Part shown: positions 507 to 10,325 of the stretch, piece after piece | Layout of the letters: each line of letters begins with the position of its first letter | Position numbering within the stretch: position 1 is the stretch's first letter | The notes under the pieces: model-generated | The model's input: only the letters and a program-made list of their open reading frames with translations | Database searches by the model: none | Told to the model about the DNA's origin: nothing | Source: Bacteroidota bacterium | Lineage (GTDB): Bacteria > Bacteroidota > Bacteroidia > Bacteroidales > SZUA-534 | Direction: 5' to 3' | NCBI GenBank assembly: GCA_003250355.1 | Contig: QKGS01000007.1 | Location: forward strand, 124,001-188,000 | DNA: 64,000 nucleotides | Position numbers and translations under genes: made by a program

Positions 507-1757
507 TTAATCATTATCGGAGTTGCCGTTCTTTCTGGTTTTTATTACCACAAACATTCTGATAATAATTACAATAAGGACAAATACAATAGCAAAAGTA
601 ATATTCATAAGTTGCTTATATGCTTTGTTCTGAACAAGAATCTGTTTTTTTAGGTCAAGCATTTTGTTTGCATACTTGCTGTATTCACTATCAGAACTGC
701 TTGAATTTGACAATACCGCTTCTTTTAGGTTTTTGTATTGTTGAAAATATCGTAATGCTTCCTCTGAGTATCCCTGAATGTAGTGTAATTCATAGTACGA
801 TTTCAGATTATCTACTTTGCTTATTGTAAGGTTAAGATTTTCAGCTATTTTCATACTTTTATCCAGATGCAATTTTGCTTCCTTAAAATTACCCATTTCA
901 AGGTACGTATTACCTATTTTATTTAGCGATTGAGCTATAATTATACTGTCTTTACTAACTGTATGAATATCATAAGCTTTCATGTAATAAAGCATGGCTT
1001 TTTCAAGTTCATCGGTAGTAAAAAATACATCGCCTATAGCATCGTATATTTTGGCTACTTCAGGGAGATTTTGAACTTTTTTTAGTTCTATTACTGAGTT
1101 TTCAAGTGTTTGTATAGCTTCCTGATTTTGATTTAGCTTGTGTAATGTAATACCCTTTAAGTAAAGTAGGTTTGATGCAGAGGTTACATTTTCTAGTTTT
1201 TTATATATATAAAGTGCTTTGTTGTAGTTTTCCAGTGCTTTGTCGTAATCTTGCCAAAAATAATAAATAGAACCCATATTGGTATACATTTCTGCCTGAT
1301 TATTAGGGTGGTCTAGTTCTATATATAACCTTAAAGCCTGATGAAAGTATAGTAATGCTTTTTTTCTGTCGCTGAGATTAAAATTAACTAAACCAATTTT
1401 TTGCATTATTTTGGCTACATCGTTTTTGTTATTAAAGGCCAGAGTATGGCGAAGTGTTTTTTGGTAATAACTCAACGCCTGTTCAAGATTCCCCATTATA
1501 TAATAGGTATTTCCTATGTAATTGGTTAATAACGCCTGGTCTTTAATGCGGTCATTCTCTGTAGCCCAGTTAAGAGCTTCAATAGCGTAAATTATAGCTT
1601 CTTGTCCTTTAATGGAATCGGTACTATTTAACTTTTTAATAAGATTTTCTACTTTTTTATCGTTTTTATCTTTATTAAAATGTTCAATTATTGAGTTATT
1701 ACCAAATGTAATTATTGGCAATATAATAGTTGCAAGTATAATTATCTGTTTTTTCAT
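507..1757 (-). CDS. TPR-repeat membrane protein without output domain
   Basis: 416 residues. An N-terminal signal-like hydrophobic segment (residues ~3-19) is followed by about eight TPR units (for example GNLEQALSYYQKTL and QDYDKALENYNKALYIY) and one C-terminal transmembrane helix (~385-408) with a short basic cytosolic tail. The layout matches the input half of the two upstream TPR signalling proteins, but nothing resembling a kinase or phosphatase follows the membrane helix. It is the third gene of a minus-strand operon, 11 bases after the TPR histidine kinase. It may be a sensor or scaffold working with those two proteins. Its ligand and function are unknown. Confidence 0.8.
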   Translation of the reverse strand: MKKQIIILATIILPIITFGNNSIIEHFNKDKNDKKVENLIKKLNSTDSIKGQEAIIYAIEALNWATENDRIKDQALLTNYIGNTYYIMGNLEQALSYYQKTLRHTLAFNNKNDVAKIMQKIGLVNFNLSDRKKALLYFHQALRLYIELDHPNNQAEMYTNMGSIYYFWQDYDKALENYNKALYIYKKLENVTSASNLLYLKGITLHKLNQNQEAIQTLENSVIELKKVQNLPEVAKIYDAIGDVFFTTDELEKAMLYYMKAYDIHTVSKDSIIIAQSLNKIGNTYLEMGNFKEAKLHLDKSMKIAENLNLTISKVDNLKSYYELHYIQGYSEEALRYFQQYKNLKEAVLSNSSSSDSEYSKYANKMLDLKKQILVQNKAYKQLMNITFAIVFVLIVIIIRMFVVIKTRKNGNSDND

Positions 1758-1768
1758 AGCCCGAGTAA

Positions 1769-4573
1769 TTAGGTTTTAGGTAAACTAAAATAAAAAATTG
1801 TTTGCTTATTTTCTACACTATCTATCCACATTTTACCATTATTTAATAAAATAAATTCCCTACATAGTTTTAATCCCAATGCATTACCCGATTCTTTATT
1901 AGTTCCTTGCAAAGAATTATTATTAGTTCCGTTTAGCAGAGTGTCAATTTTTTCTTTTGAAATACCTATGCCGTTATCTTCAATACCAATTGTAACAGTA
2001 CTTTCATTTTCTTGTGAAAAAACTCTTATAGTTCCATTTTCGTATGAGTATTTTAAAGCATTTGAAAGGAGGTTTCTCAGTACAAGATTTATTGTATTTG
2101 GGTCTGCGTATATGTTAGTATTATCAGAAATGTCATTTTTAAGTATAATATTTTTTGAAGCTGTTTGAATGCTTATTAATTTGAAGCAATCGTCAACAAT
2201 TTCACGTAAGTCAATATTTTCTTTTTTGTTAAGTATGTTTCCATTAATCCTTTTTGCCCATTGTAACAGATTGTTCAAAAGCATTACTACTGACTCTATT
2301 GTTTCATATGTTTGTATTTTGAAACTTTTTTCTTCAAGGTTCGATAGTGTAATGCTTTTATTAATAACCGATGCGCTTAAATTTGAAATAGAACTTAGTG
2401 GTATAAGCAAATCATGACCTATTATAGAGAATAAGTTATTTTGAATAGAGACGGCTCTGTTTTTTTGACGATACATTTTTAATATATATATAATCATGGT
2501 CAGAGTAAACAGTGAGAAAACAGCCATTATAATAAGTATAGTTCTTTGCGATTTGATTTTAACTATTTTGATAGAGTTTTCATTTTTAAGTTTCTGAATT
2601 TCAAACTCTTTTCTGCTTAGTTTGTATCGTATTTGTAGTTCTGCAAGTCGTTTAATATTATCGCGGTTTATTATACTGTCTTCATATTGTTCATACATTT
2701 TGTAATTGTCTAAAGCTAAAGCATGAGTTTTTAAGCCGTAGTAAAGGGTGTATAAGTCGTATGTAACATTTTTAATCAATTCGGGGTCGCTCGATTTTAA
2801 TGCAAATACTTTTGCCTCTTCAAGATGTTTTTTTGCATTTGGGTAGTTTTTGTTATTTAGATACAATTGCCCAATGTTCAATAGTGTGATAGCAATATCG
2901 CGGGGCAAAGTTGTTTCTTTTCTAATTGAAAGTGATTTTTTATAATAATCTAATGCAATGCTTGTTTTATTAAATTTCGTATATACATCACCCATATTAT
3001 TTAGAACCATTGCATACCCCGGTTGGTCATTCATTTCACTATAAAGGCTAAGGGCTTTTTGATAGAACTGAATTGATTGGTCGTACTTGTTCATGTCGCG
3101 GTATATAAGGGCGACATTATTGTATGAAGCTGCAACCCCTTTTTTGTTACCTATTTCTTCTCGTTCTCTAAGTGCTGTAAGATAGTTTTCAAGAGCTTCA
3201 GACAAGTTCCCTGAATGCCAATATACATTGCCTAAATAATTGTGAGTAACTGCTATTTGTATCCTGTTCTCCAGTTCAATATATTGTAATAAGGCTTTTT
3301 TGTGGTTCTCTATTGCAGCTTCATAATTAAGCAAGTTTAAATATATGGTTCCAATATTATTTAGTGTTTTTGCCGATAGTAGTTTGTTGTTGTTCTTTTC
3401 TGCAATGTCGAGAGTTTGCATATAATAATCGAGTGCATTGTCATACTTTGCCAGTTTCAAATACACACTTGCAATATTGCTCAAAGAGTTTGGTATAAGT
3501 TTTTCCTGATTATTATGTTCTCTCCATTCAAGAGCGAGGGTAAAATATTCAAGTGCTTTAGTGTAATTGTTTTGTGATTTGTAAACCAAACCAATATTAT
3601 CGAGCGATTTGGCAATGTTATTAATATCATTTATGTTTTTTCTGATTGCTAACGACATTTCATAGTATTGTAAACTCATGTCGTATTGTCCCATTCGCCA
3701 ATAAACGTTTCCAATGTTATTAAGCGAATATGCAATATCGCTTTGAGTTCCATTCTCTTTATTAATGGAATATGCTTGAGTATGGTGTTGTAATGCTTCG
3801 GTATAATTTCCTTTATCCATTAACAGTATGCCTAAATTAGAGTGAGCCGAAGCAAGCTTCACCGGGTCAGAACATTGTTTTCTAAAATTAAGTGACTTTT
3901 CGTATAGATTCATTGCCTCATTAAACTGTCCAATTTTCCAATATATTCCGGCAAGTGCGTTTAATGCATCGGCTTGTAATGTAATATCTTTTGTTTTACC
4001 GGCTTCATTATTTGCATTTATGTATAATTTTAAGGCTTCTTCATTTTTTCCTTGTTCATTATAGATATTCCCAATATTAATATCGGCTCTTATTTGGAGT
4101 GATTTGTCACCAGAACGCGAAAAAATATTTTTAGCCTTAGAGTAATATTTTATGGCATTAGAGTAATTAGCTTCTTTCCATGCTATATGTCCTTGCATTT
4201 GCAGAGCTATTCCGGCTTTTGCTTTATTTTTTTCTTTTGTAAATATTTTAAATGCTTCTTTAGCATTTGCGCCGGCTTTACTATAATTGTTTCTTCGGTA
4301 TTCGACCTTAGATTTTAACAGCATAGCATCGCCTTTATATTCGGGAGTATTTGAGCGAATAGCAGCAGAAAATGCTTCGTTGGCTAAATCAAAACTTTTG
4401 TTTAAGTCGGTATCAAGATACGCTTCGGCAAGTTCGAGAAGTGTAGTGGTTCTTTCTTTGCCTATTGCATGGTTTAGTTGTATTTCAATACTGTCGGTAT
4501 TTGTTCTTGATGTTAATTTGACGGAATATAAGAAGCTACATAAAAGTATAAGGCTAAATATGGTTTTATTCAT
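1769..4573 (-). CDS. TPR-domain sensor histidine kinase
   Basis: 934 residues: signal-like N-terminus, a long array of about 15 TPR units (~40-650; LNNIGNVYWRMGQYDMSLQYY is a typical unit written here only as an example of spacing), a coiled segment, one transmembrane helix (~690-710), then a kinase core. The H box is FSIIGHDLLIPLSS with His720; the ATP-binding domain shows NLLSNALKYS (N box), IEDNGIGIS (G1) and ALGLKLCREF (G2). It lies between the TPR/PP2C protein (3 bases upstream) and the outputless TPR protein, so all three are probably co-transcribed. No response regulator gene is adjacent. The stimulus is unknown; periplasmic or cytosolic placement of the TPR array is inferred from the signal-like N-terminus. 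Confidence 0.88.
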   Translation of the reverse strand: MNKTIFSLILLCSFLYSVKLTSRTNTDSIEIQLNHAIGKERTTTLLELAEAYLDTDLNKSFDLANEAFSAAIRSNTPEYKGDAMLLKSKVEYRRNNYSKAGANAKEAFKIFTKEKNKAKAGIALQMQGHIAWKEANYSNAIKYYSKAKNIFSRSGDKSLQIRADINIGNIYNEQGKNEEALKLYINANNEAGKTKDITLQADALNALAGIYWKIGQFNEAMNLYEKSLNFRKQCSDPVKLASAHSNLGILLMDKGNYTEALQHHTQAYSINKENGTQSDIAYSLNNIGNVYWRMGQYDMSLQYYEMSLAIRKNINDINNIAKSLDNIGLVYKSQNNYTKALEYFTLALEWREHNNQEKLIPNSLSNIASVYLKLAKYDNALDYYMQTLDIAEKNNNKLLSAKTLNNIGTIYLNLLNYEAAIENHKKALLQYIELENRIQIAVTHNYLGNVYWHSGNLSEALENYLTALREREEIGNKKGVAASYNNVALIYRDMNKYDQSIQFYQKALSLYSEMNDQPGYAMVLNNMGDVYTKFNKTSIALDYYKKSLSIRKETTLPRDIAITLLNIGQLYLNNKNYPNAKKHLEEAKVFALKSSDPELIKNVTYDLYTLYYGLKTHALALDNYKMYEQYEDSIINRDNIKRLAELQIRYKLSRKEFEIQKLKNENSIKIVKIKSQRTILIIMAVFSLFTLTMIIYILKMYRQKNRAVSIQNNLFSIIGHDLLIPLSSISNLSASVINKSITLSNLEEKSFKIQTYETIESVVMLLNNLLQWAKRINGNILNKKENIDLREIVDDCFKLISIQTASKNIILKNDISDNTNIYADPNTINLVLRNLLSNALKYSYENGTIRVFSQENESTVTIGIEDNGIGISKEKIDTLLNGTNNNSLQGTNKESGNALGLKLCREFILLNNGKMWIDSVENKQTIFYFSLPKT

Positions 4574-4576
4574 TGT

Positions 4577-7156
4577 TTAATCTATTTTAATACCCATTAC
4601 TAAAATATCGTCTATTTGTCGGTTATCACCTTGCCATTCATTTAATTTTCGTTCTAGTTCGTTCTTTTGTTCACTCATTTCTTTAGTGCTTATTTCAGTA
4701 AGAATTTTTCTGAAATTACTTGTAAGTAAGCGTCGTCCGTGTTCTCCTCCAAACTGATCTTGATATCCGTCTGATGCAATATAAAGAACATCGCCGGGTT
4801 GCAGGTCAATTGAGTGACCGGTAAAAGGTACTTCATCAAAAGGAATGCTGCCAATTTGCATTTTTTCCGATTCATATTCGGCAAGTACATTCTCACGTAC
4901 TAGATAGAGAGGGTTCTCGGCACCTGCAAAATCGAGTTTGTAGTTTTCAAAGTCGAATATGCACAATGCGCAAACCATACCGTCCGACGATGTAGTGCTT
5001 TTATCGGGTAGGTATAGCGCTTTTTTAATTTTAACTCTAAGTATATTTAAAATATCAGCAGCATCTTTAAATGTGTTTTTACTAATTATTTCATTAAGCA
5101 TAGTTACTCCCAACATACTCATAAATGCTCCGGGAACACCATGTCCGGTACAATCAACAGCAGCAACTATCGATTTGTTTCCAACTTTACTCATCCAGTA
5201 AAAATCGCCACTTACTATATCACGTGGCTTGTAAAATATGAAGTGATTCTTCAGAACCTCGTTTTGAATCTCTTCAGGTGGTAGTACTGCACTTTGTATT
5301 TTGCTTGCATATTCTATACTGTCGGTTATTTTCTTGTTCTTTTTTTGAATATCATCGCGTTGTGCTTCAATTTCAGAGTTCTTTTGTTCAAGCAATTCAT
5401 TAGCTTTTTTAATGATTTTATTTTGGCGGGTAATAAATATTACAAATAGCCCGGCAATAAGTATAACTGCTAAAATTGAGTAAATAAGTATTTGTTGGCG
5501 GCGGTTTTTCTCTTGTTGCTTAAATAATTGTATATCTTTTATTTTTAGTTCTTTTTCCTTTTTTTCGGTTTCATACCTTATTTGCATATCGGCAATTTTT
5601 TTAATGCTTTCTGTGCTAAGTATTTTATCATTCAGTTTTATGTAATCGGAAATGTATGTATATGCAACAACATAATTACCTGTTGCTGCATTTGCATTGG
5701 CAAGTTCAAACAGAATATCTTTTTGCAGATTTATATCTTTTTGTTTTTCAGCTATCCATAAAGCTCTGTTAAAAAGAGGTATGGCCAGATTGTACCGTTT
5801 TTCAGAGAGGTATAGTCTACCTAAATCGAGCGAAGAATTTGCTTCGCCATTAAAGTCTGATATGTCTTTACGTGCCGATAAAGCAAGCTTAAAATAATTC
5901 TCGGCAGCATCAAATTCGTTAAATTTCAAGTGAAGATTACCAATATTATTCATAGTGGCAGCAACGCTTTTCATGTCGCCAAGTTCCTGATATATATTCA
6001 ATGCAAAATCGTAATGTATAAGAGCACTATCTCTTTTTTCCATACTCTTGTATACAAGTGCAATGCTATTGTGAGAACGGGCTGCATATTTTTTGTCGCC
6101 GGTTACTTTGCGGAGAGCTAATGAGCGTGTGTATGTATTTAACGATTTTTCAAAATCTTTACTCTGCCAGTAAACACCGGCAATAAAGTTAAGTGCATTT
6201 GATTCTGAAAATTTATCGCCCGTTTTTTTATACAATTCAAGTGATTGGTGAAAATATTCCAGTGCCTTTTCATAGTTGCCTAAGTCGCGGTATATTAATC
6301 CAATATTGTTGCTTGTTGCAGCTATTTCAGTCATGTTATGTTCTTGTTCTCTAATTTCAAGAGCTTTCAAATAATTTGCCAATGCTTCTTTGTAGTCCTT
6401 ATATTGCCAGTAAACACCACCCAAATTATTGTACAAACGGGCAAGCATAGAATTATCGCCTTCGGGTAATATATCTATTGATTTTTGTATATACGAAATA
6501 GCAGCTTCAATATCGTTGTTGCGTTTATATAGTGTAGCTATATTATTGTATGTTGCTGCAATTGACGATGAGTCACCTAGCGATTCTCTTATTTCAAGAA
6601 CCTGCTTATAAAAACTCATGGCTGAGTCATGAAGATTCTGTGTTAAAAAAACATTGCCAATATAATTCAACGTATTAGCAAGCTCTTCTCTATTATTTCT
6701 TTTTAACCAAAAACTATTAGCTCTAAAATAAAATTCAAGTGCGGTTTTATAATCGCCTATACTGTTGTATGCTAAACCTAAATTATTTAATATGTGTGCA
6801 TATTTTTCGTTGTTTTTATCATTTTCAAGTAATTGAAGTGCGTTGGAGTATTGCTGTATTGCTTGGTCAAAATCGCCTGTTCGCCAGTAAACTCCACCTA
6901 AGTAATTAAGTGAAGTGGCTTGTCCTTGAATATCAGATAATTCTTTGTAAATATTTAATGCTTCTATGTGTTTGTCAATTGCCTTGTCGAGTTGTCCTGT
7001 GTTGCGTAATTCAACACCTACTTTATTAAGCATATATGCTTTGTCCTGAATATTATAGGTTGTATTTAATTCTTCTTGTAATTGTTCAAGTGTTTGGTTA
7101 AATGCTGTATTACAAAATAGAAGAATTAAGGATAGGGTTATTAGGTGCTTTATCAT
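4577..7156 (-). CDS. TPR protein with C-terminal SpoIIE/PP2C serine phosphatase domain
   Basis: 859 residues, first gene of a three-gene minus-strand operon. A signal-like N-terminus is followed by about 12 TPR units (~30-500), a transmembrane helix (~555-575, LIYSILAVILIAGLFVIFI), a coiled coil, and a PP2C-type phosphatase domain (~630-859). Metal-binding motifs of the SpoIIE class are visible: RDIVSGDFYW, VAAVDCTGHGVPGAFMS, YIASDGYQDQFGG and DDILVMGI. Such phosphatases dephosphorylate Ser/Thr-phosphorylated partner proteins. The divergently transcribed neighbour encodes a SiaC-family phosphoprotein, the known substrate class of the PP2C protein SiaA in Pseudomonas. No HPt or kinase domain is present, so a SiaB-like kinase must be elsewhere. 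Confidence 0.9.
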   Translation of the reverse strand: MIKHLITLSLILLFCNTAFNQTLEQLQEELNTTYNIQDKAYMLNKVGVELRNTGQLDKAIDKHIEALNIYKELSDIQGQATSLNYLGGVYWRTGDFDQAIQQYSNALQLLENDKNNEKYAHILNNLGLAYNSIGDYKTALEFYFRANSFWLKRNNREELANTLNYIGNVFLTQNLHDSAMSFYKQVLEIRESLGDSSSIAATYNNIATLYKRNNDIEAAISYIQKSIDILPEGDNSMLARLYNNLGGVYWQYKDYKEALANYLKALEIREQEHNMTEIAATSNNIGLIYRDLGNYEKALEYFHQSLELYKKTGDKFSESNALNFIAGVYWQSKDFEKSLNTYTRSLALRKVTGDKKYAARSHNSIALVYKSMEKRDSALIHYDFALNIYQELGDMKSVAATMNNIGNLHLKFNEFDAAENYFKLALSARKDISDFNGEANSSLDLGRLYLSEKRYNLAIPLFNRALWIAEKQKDINLQKDILFELANANAATGNYVVAYTYISDYIKLNDKILSTESIKKIADMQIRYETEKKEKELKIKDIQLFKQQEKNRRQQILIYSILAVILIAGLFVIFITRQNKIIKKANELLEQKNSEIEAQRDDIQKKNKKITDSIEYASKIQSAVLPPEEIQNEVLKNHFIFYKPRDIVSGDFYWMSKVGNKSIVAAVDCTGHGVPGAFMSMLGVTMLNEIISKNTFKDAADILNILRVKIKKALYLPDKSTTSSDGMVCALCIFDFENYKLDFAGAENPLYLVRENVLAEYESEKMQIGSIPFDEVPFTGHSIDLQPGDVLYIASDGYQDQFGGEHGRRLLTSNFRKILTEISTKEMSEQKNELERKLNEWQGDNRQIDDILVMGIKID

Positions 7157-7310
7157 AATTTGAATGACTTAGTTATGGTATTTGTAAACATATAAATAAT
7201 ATGGCAGTTTTACAATCATATACATGAATATGTCAGGGGATTCATCTGTTAAATATTTTATAAAAAAAATGTATCCAAACTCATTATGTGTAATAGCCTT
7301 TTTTTGAAGC

Positions 7311-7341
7311 TTTGAACCCAAAAAACAATTTGCTATATTTG
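7311..7341 (+). promoter_or_regulatory. Bacteroidota-type promoter of the siaC-like gene
   Basis: A -33 element TTTG (7311-7314) and a -7 element TATATTTG (7334-7341) are separated by 19 bases, matching the TTTG-N19-21-TAnnTTTG consensus. The start codon lies 20 bases downstream of the -7 element, so the leader would be very short. Confidence 0.65.
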
Positions 7342-7361
7342 GTTAAATATTTTATAAGCGA

Positions 7362-7754
7362 ATGAACGAATTAGTATTAAAAGCTACCGATACAACATTA
7401 GGGATAGTATTGAATAAGAAAGATAATATTTTCAAATTTGAGGGGAGAAGTCGTCCCGAGAATGCTGTTGATTATTATCAGAAAGTATTTGATTGGGTAA
7501 AGGAATATGCCAAAGACCCACTAGAGAAAACGGTAATAGATTTTAAGCTTGATTATTTTAATTCATCGTCGGCAAAAGTTTTTATACAGCTACTTGAGCG
7601 TTTTGAAAAAATTCATAAAACAGCCGGTGAAATATTAATTAAATGGCACTATTTAAAGGGTGATGACGATATATTGGAAGTAGGTGAAGACTTCTCGGAA
7701 TTAGTAGATATACCATTTGAATATTGTGAAATAAAGAAGACTTTATCGAAATGA
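7362..7754 (+). CDS. SiaC family regulatory phosphoprotein (DUF1987)
   Basis: 130 residues, full length for the family. The protein matches the SiaC/DUF1987 pattern: an N-terminal beta strand, the [14 protein letters not shown] segment, [16 protein letters not shown] at the phosphorylation site and a C-terminal two-stranded end. In Pseudomonas aeruginosa SiaC the residue controlled by kinase SiaB and phosphatase SiaA is Thr68; here the same position is Ser68. The gene is divergent from the TPR/PP2C phosphatase, supporting a SiaA-SiaC-like pair. The stop codon overlaps the ridA start by four bases. The downstream partner (a diguanylate cyclase in Pseudomonas) is not in the window. Confidence 0.85.
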
Positions 7755-8128
7755 AAAGAATAATATCAACCAATAAAGCACCGCAAGCAATAGGGCCTTA
7801 TAGCCAGGCAGTAGAGGCAAATGGTCAATTGTATATATCGGGTCAGATACCATTGCACCCCGAAACCGGTGAGATGCCGCAGGGTATAGAAGCACAAACC
7901 CGCTTGGTGTTTGAAAATATAAAGGCAATTCTTATGGAAGCAGGTTACTCGTTTGCCGATGTTGTTAAATCGACTGTATTGTTGAAAGACATTAACGACT
8001 TTGCTGTTATGAATAGTGTTTATGCCGAGTATTATACAGAAAACCCTCCTGCACGTGCAGCTTATGAAGTGGCAAACCTCCCTAAAAATGCATTGATTGA
8101 AATTGAAACTATTGCAATAAAAGCTTAG
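7751..8128 (+). CDS. ridA: RidA family enamine/imine deaminase
   Basis: 125 residues, the usual size of a trimeric RidA subunit. Family motifs are [11 protein letters not shown] near the N-terminus, [14 protein letters not shown], and [20 protein letters not shown] near the C-terminus, which contains the substrate-binding arginine. RidA hydrolyses reactive 2-aminoacrylate and other enamine/imine products of PLP enzymes to 2-keto acids and ammonia. The ATG overlaps the end of the SiaC-like gene (ATGA), so the two are translationally coupled, although no metabolic link between them is obvious. Confidence 0.92.
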
Positions 8129-8210: not shown

Positions 8211-9677
8211 ATGAAAAAAATAACAGTATCAATAATAGTTGCTTTTTTAATTATTGTGAGTGTATATGCTCAAAGTCCGGAAAAAATTAGTTATCAGGCT
8301 ATAATACGTAATAGTACCGGCGAACTAATTAAAAGTAAGTTGGTGGGAGTGCAAATAAGTATTTTGTATGGAAATTCTAACGGGAAGGTAGTATATTCTG
8401 AACTTCATAATTCAGAAACCAATGAAAATGGATTGCTTACTTTAGAAATAGGAACAGGAGTAACCGGATATAATTTTTCTGAAATAGCATGGTCTACCGG
8501 CGACTATTTTATAAAAATAGAAACCGATATTACCGGTGGCAATAATTATACTATTGCCGGAGTAAGTCAGTTGTTAAGTGTACCTTATGCATTATATGCC
8601 AAAGAAGCAGGGAATATGCCTGATGTAAGTGGCTTTGCAAATATAACGGCATTAAATGATACAGCTGCGAGTATTCGTTCCAATATGTTTAGTGGCAATT
8701 ATAATGAATTGATAGAGAAGCCCGATTTGTTATTAATGCATTTAAATACAAAGGCAATTCAAGATACAGCTTTTCAAATAAGAGCTGACATTCCAAATGT
8801 CAGCAGATTTGTTACAACTGGAGCACTATCAGATACTATTGAGAGAATTAATGCAGAACACGCAAAAGCTATTGCCGATACTACATTATTATTACTTACA
8901 TATATTAAAAAGCTTGAGTCGGTTTTATATCAGGTTTCAGAACCTCAGGCATTATTCAATGCAGGGGTTAGTATTGATGATATTGTAGCATATATGAAAG
9001 ATGGGGCTATAATAAAAAATGGACTTGTAGATACTCGTGATAATAATAAATATTCGGTTCTAAAATTGGGTAGTCAGTTGTGGATGTCTGACAATCTTGC
9101 TTATTTGCCTCATGTTCATAATAATAGTGAGTTTATATCAAAAGGGTCATTAGCTATGCCGGCATATGGTGTTTATGGATATAATGGCAATGATATGTTA
9201 ATTGCAAAGGCTAATTCATATTATTTGGAATATGGGGTGCTTTATAATTGGTATGCTGTTAATACCGATAGTTTATGTCCGGCAGGATGGCATGTTCCAA
9301 CCGATAATGAGTGGATAATTCTCGAAACATATTTATCGGCAAAAGGTTACAATTATGATAGTACTATTGGTGCAGGTAGTAGTAAAATAGCAAAAGCAAT
9401 GGCTTCTACAGTTTTGTGGAATGTGTCAACAACTAGCGGAGCCGTTGGTTCTGACTTAAGTATTAATAATGCAAGTGGTTTTTCGGCACTTCCCGGAGGA
9501 TACAGATTGGGAACCGATGGTACATCGCACAATGAGGGAAATCATGCATATTTTTGGAGCATTTCAGAGAGTGGAGTCGATGTATTAAGCCGACTTATAA
9601 GTTATAATAATGCAGGGGTATCGAAAGGGAGTAGTGCAAAAACATTGGGATTATCGGTTCGCTGTTTGAAAGATTAA
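8211..9677 (+). CDS. Secreted FISUMP-domain protein
   Basis: 488 residues. A signal peptide (MKKITVSIIVAFLIIVSVYA) is followed by a beta-rich N-terminal domain (~20-130, opening QSPEKISYQAIIRN, common in secreted Bacteroidota proteins), a helical linker, and a C-terminal FISUMP domain (~270-488; Fibrobacter succinogenes major paralogous domain). The FISUMP signature includes GSQLWMSDNLAY, GVLYNWYAVNTDSLCPAGWH and a final LGLSVRCLKD. The domain's biochemical role is not established; it is found in surface and secreted proteins. No T9SS sorting tail is visible in this protein. A T9SS substrate follows. Confidence 0.85.
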   Translation: MKKITVSIIVAFLIIVSVYAQSPEKISYQAIIRNSTGELIKSKLVGVQISILYGNSNGKVVYSELHNSETNENGLLTLEIGTGVTGYNFSEIAWSTGDYFIKIETDITGGNNYTIAGVSQLLSVPYALYAKEAGNMPDVSGFANITALNDTAASIRSNMFSGNYNELIEKPDLLLMHLNTKAIQDTAFQIRADIPNVSRFVTTGALSDTIERINAEHAKAIADTTLLLLTYIKKLESVLYQVSEPQALFNAGVSIDDIVAYMKDGAIIKNGLVDTRDNNKYSVLKLGSQLWMSDNLAYLPHVHNNSEFISKGSLAMPAYGVYGYNGNDMLIAKANSYYLEYGVLYNWYAVNTDSLCPAGWHVPTDNEWIILETYLSAKGYNYDSTIGAGSSKIAKAMASTVLWNVSTTSGAVGSDLSINNASGFSALPGGYRLGTDGTSHNEGNHAYFWSISESGVDVLSRLISYNNAGVSKGSSAKTLGLSVRCLKD

Positions 9678-9773
9678 TTTACACCTTATAGCCGAATGAG
9701 ACCAGTGTTTAAATGAGACATTGTTAATTACGTAGTGCTTTTAGAGGGTATTAGAAAGAAAATCAAAAAGCAA

Positions 9774-10325
9774 ATGAGAAAGAAAATACTTTTAGTAGTA
9801 GTATTTATATTACCTATAATAGGACTGCTTGCTCAGACACAAGTAACTGCAGGGGGAGGCGAAGCCTCAAGTAGTGCCGGTATAGTTAGTTACTCCGTAG
9901 GGCAAGTAGCATATCAAAGCTACATTACCAGCAACGGAACAATAGCCGAAGGTATTCAGCAAGCCTACGAGATTTCAACCTTAATAGGCATAGAAGACAA
10001 AACTATAAGCCTTGTGCAAGTAGTGTTGTACCCAAACCCTGTAACCGATTATCTGATACTCTCGGTAAAGACGCAAGATATTGCGTCTCAGAAACCGCAA
10101 GATGTTGCGTTTCAACAGACTCAAGATATTGCGTCTCAACAATATATTACATCGCAGCAATTGCAATTTCAATTGTATGATTTGCAAGGTAAATTAGTAC
10201 AAAGTCAAAAGCTGACCGATAGCGAAACTCAGATAAATATGAGAGGGTATGTGCCGTCAACTTATTATATTAAAGTAACATTAGAAAATAAGTTGGTTGA
10301 AGAATTTAAAGTAGTTAAGAATTAA
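9774..10325 (+). CDS. T9SS type A sorting-domain protein
   Basis: 183 residues from the ATG at 9774, chosen because a signal peptide begins there (MRKKILLVVVFILPIIGLLA); an upstream GTG at 9735 would add a charged extension. The short mature part (AGGGEASSSAGIVSYSVGQV) is typical of small T9SS substrates. The C-terminal domain (~85-183) has the marks of type A sorting domains: VVLYPNPVTDYLIL, QLYDLQGKLV, and a final strand ending EEFKVVKN. This domain directs export through the Por/T9SS machinery. Three 8-residue QD(I/V)A(S/F)Q repeats interrupt the domain between its first strands; they derive from a palindromic DNA repeat described separately. Confidence 0.85.
   Translation: MRKKILLVVVFILPIIGLLAQTQVTAGGGEASSSAGIVSYSVGQVAYQSYITSNGTIAEGIQQAYEISTLIGIEDKTISLVQVVLYPNPVTDYLILSVKTQDIASQKPQDVAFQQTQDIASQQYITSQQLQFQLYDLQGKLVQSQKLTDSETQINMRGYVPSTYYIKVTLENKLVEEFKVVKN
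10069..10136. repeat. Three tandem 24-bp palindromic units inside a T9SS sorting domain
   Basis: The first unit is a perfect inverted repeat, AGACGCAA-GATA-TTGCGTCT (10069-10088). A second (10091-10113, GAAACCGCAA-GATG-TTGCGTTTC) and third (10117-10136, AGACTCAA-GATA-TTGCGTCT) are degenerate copies. The centres at 10077, 10101 and 10125 are exactly 24 bp apart, so each unit adds eight codons without changing frame. Similar GAGACGCAA..TTGCGTCTC palindromes are, from memory, a dispersed repeat type in some Bacteroidota and cyanobacteria. Confidence 0.8.

What the first reader, a model, noticed from the sequence alone, without database searches (positions are those of the whole stretch)
4577..7754. 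SiaA-SiaC-like partner switch with serine at the phosphosite, fused to a TPR sensor
The sequence shows a TPR/transmembrane/PP2C phosphatase gene divergent from a SiaC-family gene. In Pseudomonas the PP2C protein SiaA dephosphorylates SiaC at Thr68. Here the phosphatase has a TPR array instead of the SiaA sensor, and the equivalent residue is Ser68. No SiaB-like kinase or SiaD-like cyclase is nearby. Inference: a Bacteroidota version of the switch with a different input and output, possibly without c-di-GMP.
Basis: partly seen in the sequence, partly recalled or inferred. Interest (0 to 1): 0.7.

Follow-up and report, generated by a model that had tools for sequence, protein, structure and literature searches.

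The report
Sia-type phosphoswitch genes without c-di-GMP
Two neighbouring genes encode parts of a known bacterial on/off protein switch (a phosphatase with a sensor, and the kind of small protein it probably resets); this genome carries many copies of the switch but lacks the signal-making enzyme the switch controls in Pseudomonas, so here it must control something else, quite possibly an exporter.

Summary
In detail: 4577-7156(-) is a TPR/TM/PP2C protein whose phosphatase domain resembles SiaA far more than SpoIIE; 7362-7754(+) is a SiaC-family protein with the SiaC fold and Ser at the T68 position. Ser is ordinary: 7 of the genome's 17 SiaC copies have it. SiaB kinases are absent nearby, but 5 SiaB-like genes lie elsewhere. 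"Without c-di-GMP" holds: no GGDEF in the genome; of 60 genomes searched (own included), the same 36 carry SiaC, SiaA-type PP2C and SiaB, and none of those has GGDEF. The specific pairing is weak: in six relatives the genes lie 3-11 kb apart with others between; in three genomes of one genus, in different surroundings. The phosphatase's steadier neighbour is another TPR protein. Beyond the window, the best-conserved Sia module is an operon PAS/GAF-PP2C - SiaB - SiaC - ABC-2 transporter - lipoprotein (first four genes in 68 of 70 loci with room), which suggests an exporter as output in place of SiaD. Verdict: new variant of a known kind; the variant is the multi-copy network without c-di-GMP, not Ser68.

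The parts
7362..7754 (+). SiaC-family regulatory phosphoprotein, 130 aa
   Evidence: PF09345 116.1 bits; PDB SiaC 6kko/6k4f E 2e-15; fold match to SiaC chains, TM 0.84-0.89
7563..7565 (+). codon of Ser68, at the position of SiaC Thr68, first residue of helix 2
   Evidence: helix 68-87 in the model
4577..7156 (-). signal-peptide-like start - TPR array - TM - SiaA-type PP2C phosphatase, 859 aa
4580..5422 (-). linker and SiaA-type PP2C domain (residues 579-859), motifs GDF, VDCTGHG, SDG, DD present
   Evidence: NF038263 match 579-859; alignment to 6k4e; motif positions
5432..5491 (-). single transmembrane stretch (residues about 556-575)
   Evidence: hydropathy maximum
5627..7054 (-). TPR array (about residues 35-510), expected outside the inner membrane
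   Evidence: Pfam TPR matches; topology inferred from hydropathy
1769..4573 (-). TPR - TM - histidine kinase, 934 aa, 3 bp downstream of the PP2C gene; kind of neighbour that the PP2C keeps in relatives
507..1757 (-). TPR protein, 416 aa, third gene of the block
7751..8128 (+). RidA-family protein whose start overlaps the SiaC stop by 4 bases; recurrent neighbour of this SiaC
   Evidence: RidA downstream in 10 of 15 same-family loci with room, own included
7157..7361 (.). 205-bp divergent intergenic region

Best explanation
The two genes are components of a SiaABC-type Ser/Thr partner switch that exists here as a genome-wide network: 17 SiaC proteins, 5 SiaB-like kinase genes and about 16 SiaA-type PP2C phosphatases. 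A signal read outside the membrane by the TPR array would activate the cytoplasmic PP2C, which removes phosphate from the Ser/Thr at position 68 of a SiaC, perhaps the neighbouring one; a SiaB from elsewhere in the genome puts it back. Unphosphorylated SiaC would then bind a client protein. The client is not a GGDEF enzyme. The best-conserved candidate in this lineage is the ABC-2 transporter encoded with the core SiaABC genes; the client of the window's SiaC is unknown. Shown here: family and fold membership, conserved catalytic motifs and phosphosite hydroxyl, co-occurrence of the three parts, absence of GGDEF, the conserved core operon. Inferred: phosphorylation, direction of the switch, who acts on whom (pairing of these two particular genes about 0.3-0.35), the clients.
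For: PP2C domain is SiaA-like. SiaC family and fold. All 17 paralogues have Ser or Thr at the aligned position 68. One SiaB homologue was compared with PDB and hits P. aeruginosa SiaB 6kko_A at E 5e-12; in the alignment of the 6 SiaB domains all keep a Glu...Asn box (E..QN in 5, E..EN in the C1 copy) and GLG. Group F SiaC carries the identical motif YFNSSSAK with a SiaB-like gene directly upstream in 4 of 4 genomes, so a Ser site goes with a SiaB. SiaC, SiaA-type PP2C and SiaB occur in the same 36 of 60 genomes and are all absent at these thresholds in the other 24; GGDEF in 1 of 60, in a genome lacking the switch. Only 2 stand-alone STAS (PF01740) proteins stand against 18 SpoIIE-type phosphatases (other STAS families were not searched). 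Core operon PP2C-SiaB-SiaC-ABC in 68 of 70 loci with room.
Against: No biochemical data. The window pair is not a conserved operon. The phosphatase keeps a TPR protein as neighbour (16 of 17 loci), so its target may be another SiaC or something else. Neither protein reaches the NCBIfam equivalog cut-off (SiaC 76.7 of 150; SiaA 205 of 700). Co-occurrence counts are not phylogenetically independent (20 of the 36 genomes are one family).
Confidence: 0.68

Rival explanations
1. A dedicated two-gene pair: this TPR-PP2C specifically dephosphorylates the adjacent SiaC at Ser68.
For: Divergent adjacency here; both best orthologues within 3-11 kb on one contig in G001, G002, G004, G005, G007, G011; in G008 the same phosphatase sits head-to-head, about 260 bp away, with a different SiaC (L105); SiaC genes have a PP2C within 2 kb in 14 of 92 cases over 7 genomes against 2.4 expected.
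Against: Other genes (a panB-like gene, a pseudouridine synthase, in some an OmpA-family gene) lie between them in relatives; in the three g4 genomes where both loci were read (G003, G013, G015) surroundings differ; 10 of the 14 close pairs have a SiaB within 2 kb, orthologous cases are counted repeatedly, and the window pair itself (2.2 kb domain to domain) is not among the 14.
Confidence: 0.3
2. The TPR-PP2C works mainly with the TPR-histidine kinase beside it, and its proximity to SiaC is incidental.
For: A TPR protein lies within two genes in 16 of 17 relatives' loci; a histidine-kinase match in the neighbouring TPR protein was seen in 7 of these loci (L092, L094, L096, L097, L098, L103, L111).
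Against: The PP2C domain is SiaA-like, and among the 60 genomes searched such domains occur only where SiaC and SiaB occur.
Confidence: 0.3
3. The phosphatase acts on classical STAS anti-anti-sigma proteins (SpoIIAA/RsbV type).
For: The genome holds 2 stand-alone STAS proteins and 2 small stand-alone HATPase_c_2 proteins.
Against: SpoIIE matches the domain only at E 0.0034 against 8.4e-39 for SiaA; one phosphatase at C92 scores far higher as a classical SpoIIE domain (144 bits) and is a likelier partner for these.
Confidence: 0.08

Closest known systems
SiaABCD of Pseudomonas aeruginosa (PMC7647112, PMC8457831; passages read)
   Same: SiaA-type PP2C, SiaC fold, hydroxyl residue at position 68 at the start of helix 2; SiaB-like kinases elsewhere in the genome; Y65, N67 and S69 kept
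   Different: TPR array as sensor; no SiaB or SiaD next to the pair; no GGDEF in the genome; SiaD-contact residues R103 and D114 are D and L here; 17 SiaC copies
SpoIIE/RsbU - SpoIIAB/RsbW - SpoIIAA/RsbV partner switches
   Same: Same logic (recalled): PP2C phosphatase, GHKL-type kinase, small switch protein. PMC7647112 compares SiaC with 4QTP, whose site is S58, also at the start of helix 2; PMC8457831 calls SiaC structurally related to STAS domains
   Different: Sequence families differ: the window SiaC matches no STAS family at E <= 0.01 and the phosphatase is SiaA-like
HsbA and BgrV partner switches acting on diguanylate cyclases (named in PMC8457831)
   Same: Switch protein gates a client enzyme, not a sigma factor
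   Different: They use STAS proteins and a diguanylate cyclase client; no GGDEF exists here
Core Bacteroidales SiaABC - ABC-2 transporter - lipoprotein operon (found here)
   Same: Same three protein families, in the same genome
   Different: PAS/GAF sensor, Thr at the site in 80 of 80 loci, gene cluster on one strand with kinase and candidate client

Membership tests
SiaC family (PF09345) | curated family score | tested here: met
   116.1 bits against 24.5
SiaC family (PF09345) | SiaC fold | tested here: met
   model pLDDT 92.4, 8 of 8 PDB matches at E <= 0.001 are SiaC
SiaC family (PF09345) | Ser/Thr at position 68 at the N-terminus of helix 2 | tested here: met
   S68, helix 68-87
SiaC family (PF09345) | reversible phosphorylation at that residue | not testable with these tools
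   needs phosphoproteomics or kinase assay
SiaC equivalog of P. aeruginosa (NF038265) | equivalog cut-off | tested here: not met
   76.7 of 150 bits
SiaC equivalog of P. aeruginosa (NF038265) | SiaD-binding residues | tested here: not met
   Y65, N67, S69 kept; I71 to A, M75 to I, D79 to E, R103 to D, L107 to V, E110 to D, D114 to L
SiaA-type PP2C phosphatase | PP2C domain closest to SiaA with metal-binding motifs | tested here: met
   6k4e E 8.4e-39; motifs
SiaA equivalog (NF038263) | full-length equivalog cut-off | tested here: not met
   205 of 700 bits, match only over 579-859; the N-terminus differs
SiaABCD operon system | adjacent SiaB kinase | tested here: not met
   SiaB-like genes only on other contigs C79, C76, C30, C1
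SiaABCD operon system | GGDEF client SiaD | tested here: not met
   0 GGDEF in the genome
SiaABCD operon system | SiaA acts on SiaC | not testable with these tools
   needs an in-vitro assay

The most novel reading that the evidence does not exclude
A bacterial lineage in which SiaABC switches have been multiplied into a many-input, many-client Ser/Thr signalling network that does not use c-di-GMP: ten or more old SiaC types per genome, each with its own client, phosphorylated by few SiaB kinases and reset by many sensor phosphatases, with an ABC-2 exporter plus lipoprotein as the core client.
Probability: 0.45. Interest if true: 0.72.

Novelty: new variant of a known kind. Interest (0 to 1): 0.52.

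Why it matters
In the papers seen here, SiaC is known experimentally as an activator of one diguanylate cyclase. Seven genomes examined hold 10-17 SiaC genes each, with kinases and phosphatases but no GGDEF, so the switch must have other clients, and the core operon names a testable one (an ABC-2 transporter with an N-terminal TerB domain). That would change how PP2C/SiaB/SiaC genes in Bacteroidota are read and would give these bacteria a sizeable Ser/Thr signalling network beside two-component systems.

Tried and rejected
Ser68 as a novelty: rejected (7 of 17 paralogues; Ser in 12 and Thr in 3 best-hit members of the window's group from the same family; the same-family best hits of G002, G006 and G009 belong to other SiaC groups and were left out of that count). 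No kinase: rejected for the genome. A lineage-specific burst of duplication: not favoured; in the tree of 65 SiaC rows from 5 genera the 17 own copies spread over many groups with roughly one member per genome (only 25 of 62 inner branches starred, so deep order is unresolved; G003_L220 is put in the window's group by best hit, not by the tree). The lipoprotein of the core operon has no Pfam match at E <= 0.05 and no PDB fold match at E <= 0.001 (model pLDDT 80.8). The statistic uses a simple density null without contig lengths and counts orthologous pairs repeatedly; its SiaB list was taken from the shown rows, so some SiaB were missing, and its SiaC list holds one short fragment (G002 C120:10590). 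In one search a pattern misread the site of three loci as Ser; searches show they are Thr. Papers: 'DUF1987' 1 paper; 'SiaC family', 'SiaB family', 'DUF6272' none; SiaC with phosphoprotein and Bacteroidota none; four of ABC transporter, TerB, SpoIIE, SiaC, Bacteroidales none; a broader search gave 8 papers, of which those holding both SiaC and Bacteroidetes have each word once; the 3 papers for PP2C with TPR in Bacteroidetes were off the point by their titles. The library lacks most subscription journals, so this is no proof of novelty; the SiaB-SiaC paper cited as Chen et al. 2020 in PMC8457831 was not read.
Full report
What is there. The window lies at G000:C75:124001-188000 of a 3.70-Mb genome in 106 contigs (99.98% complete). 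ORF 4577-7156(-) encodes 859 aa: a signal-peptide-like start, a TPR array, one TM stretch at about 556-575 and a C-terminal PP2C domain. Searched against PDB sequences, the linker plus PP2C domain hits SiaA-PP2C of P. aeruginosa (6k4e, E 8.4e-39, over the whole domain) and otherwise only SpoIIE at E 0.0034; the motifs GDF, VDCTGHG, SDG and DD are present (that they bind metal is recalled). ORF 7362-7754(+) encodes 130 aa of family SiaC. Its residue 68 is Ser in the motif YFNSSSAK, numbered exactly as T68 of SiaC. The AlphaFold2 model (mean pLDDT 92.4) has helix 2 starting at residue 68, and Foldseek returns only SiaC chains at E <= 0.001 (8 of 8; TM-score by query 0.84-0.89). Both proteins stay below the NCBIfam cut-offs for the Pseudomonas equivalogs.

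Ser at the phosphosite is ordinary. The genome has 17 SiaC proteins; 7 carry Ser and 10 Thr at this position. In best-hit members of the window's group from the same family, Ser stands in 12 and Thr in 3 (three same-family best hits of other groups left out). Another group (C1 type) has the identical motif YFNSSSAK and a SiaB-like gene directly upstream in 4 of 4 genomes, which suggests Ser sites are served by SiaB kinases. PMC7647112 (passages read) itself compares SiaC with a protein whose target site is Ser.

The kinase exists, elsewhere. Six SiaB-type domains (PF19788) lie at five places on other contigs, one gene holding two. One was compared with PDB and hits P. aeruginosa SiaB (6kko_A, E 5e-12). 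All six keep a Glu...Asn box (E..QN in five, E..EN in the C1 copy) and GLG; the second domain of the tandem gene has lost the glycines before GLG. Four of the 17 SiaC genes have SiaB directly upstream; the window's is one of 13 without.

The output is not c-di-GMP made by a GGDEF enzyme. GGDEF (PF00990) has no match in the genome, while the same search rings in 8 of 14 control genomes. Among 60 genomes (own included; 20 of one family, 40 of other families of the order), SiaC (E <= 1e-15), SiaA-type PP2C (E <= 1e-30) and SiaB (E <= 0.001) occur in exactly the same 36 and are missing at these thresholds in the other 24; counted by family, 17 against 24. GGDEF occurs in 1 of 60, a genome without the switch. 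Relatedness inflates the count, but the three parts behave as one system. SiaC residues that contact SiaD (passages of PMC8457831) are only partly kept: Y65, N67 and S69 are; R103 and D114 are D and L.

Is this phosphatase the partner of this SiaC? In G001, G002, G004, G005, G007 and G011 the best orthologues of both genes lie on one contig 3-11 kb apart. In five of these (L092, L093, L095, L096, L097) the order, on one strand, is PP2C - TPR/kinase genes - panB-like gene - pseudouridine synthase - (in some an OmpA-family gene) - SiaC; in the sixth (L094, G007) more genes lie between. Where the contig goes on far enough (L093, L095, L096) there follow RidA - rplI - rpsR - rpsF (the families of the between-genes were checked on one or two loci each). 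In the window the TPR block has the opposite orientation and the panB-like and pseudouridine synthase genes are not at this place, giving the head-to-head pair. In genus g4 the genomes where both loci were read (G003, G013, G015) have the two genes in different surroundings. Of 17 relatives' loci with the phosphatase, 16 have a TPR protein within two genes (the 17th, L108, is near a contig end) and 1 has a SiaC next to it: in G008, head-to-head at about 260 bp, but a different paralogue. The window SiaC keeps RidA downstream in 10 of 15 same-family loci with room, own included, overlapping by 4 bases here. So the link is a conserved neighbourhood, not a conserved gene pair. I give the specific pairing about 0.3-0.35.

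What the switch does in this lineage. The best-conserved SiaC (C79 type) sits in a one-strand cluster PAS/GAF-PP2C - SiaB - SiaC - TerB/ABC/ABC-2 transporter (1018 aa) - lipoprotein (305 aa). SiaB is upstream on the same strand in 80 of 80, PP2C in 77 and the transporter downstream in 74; of 70 loci with at least 2 kb upstream and 1.5 kb downstream, 68 have all four on one strand (the other two, L151 and L189, lack a transporter match); the lipoprotein is within 4 kb in 67 of 80. All 80 have Thr at the site. In five genera of the window's family the cluster is preceded by GAF, CheB and CheR genes (5 of 5; families checked on the own copy). A second SiaB-SiaC pair stands beside a paralogous transporter (45% identical) and lipoprotein (27%, E 2e-38) in the own genome, there convergent with SiaC. 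The transporter is therefore the leading candidate for a client; that SiaC binds it is inference. Other SiaC groups keep other tightly spaced neighbours: a rhomboid-family gene 7-10 bp downstream (5 of 5), and a protein with weak alpha/beta-hydrolase similarity 1-10 bp downstream (4 of 4).

Relation to the literature. PMC8457831 (passages read) suggests that DUF1987 proteins in general modulate adjacent proteins; the present data fit that and give candidates. PMC9239204 (passages read) treats SiaABCD as a PP2C/kinase/STAS pathway merged with c-di-GMP. I found no paper on SiaC in Bacteroidota in the held library.

Verdict. Components of a known switch in a new variant: multi-copy, with TPR and PAS/GAF inputs and no GGDEF output. 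The window pair by itself is a modest example; the network is the interesting part.

Noticed in passing
L016:3508-14637 (G000:C79): Core cluster CheR-like - CheR - CheB - GAF - PAS/GAF-PP2C - SiaB - SiaC - TerB/ABC/ABC-2 transporter - lipoprotein - small secreted-like protein; SiaC 80-92% identical in the 11 loci titled Salinivirgaceae.
   Followed up: partly
L024:6892-8013: Tandem SiaB gene with two DUF6272 domains, second one with a degraded G-box, SiaC directly downstream and a TPR-PP2C convergent one gene further; a two-domain SiaB before SiaC recurs in 5 of 5 genera examined.
   Followed up: partly
L105:3590-6899 (G008): Orthologue of the window phosphatase head-to-head with a different SiaC paralogue, the same arrangement as in the window but with another partner.
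   Followed up: partly
L029:7475-8464: Divergent SiaC with site YLSSASHH, directly followed by a rhomboid-family gene in 5 of 5 genera.
   Followed up: no
window 8211-10325: Two genes (Fib_succ_major domain, 488 aa; Por_Secre_tail sorting domain, 196 aa) between RidA and the rplI-rpsR-rpsF cluster that are absent at this place in G001, G005 and G011.
   Followed up: partly
window 507-7156: Three consecutive TPR proteins (TPR only, TPR-histidine kinase, TPR-PP2C): two outputs behind related sensors, block recurring in relatives.
   Followed up: partly
window 7751-7754: SiaC stop and RidA start overlap by 4 bases; the pair recurs in 10 of 15 same-family loci with room, own included.
   Followed up: partly
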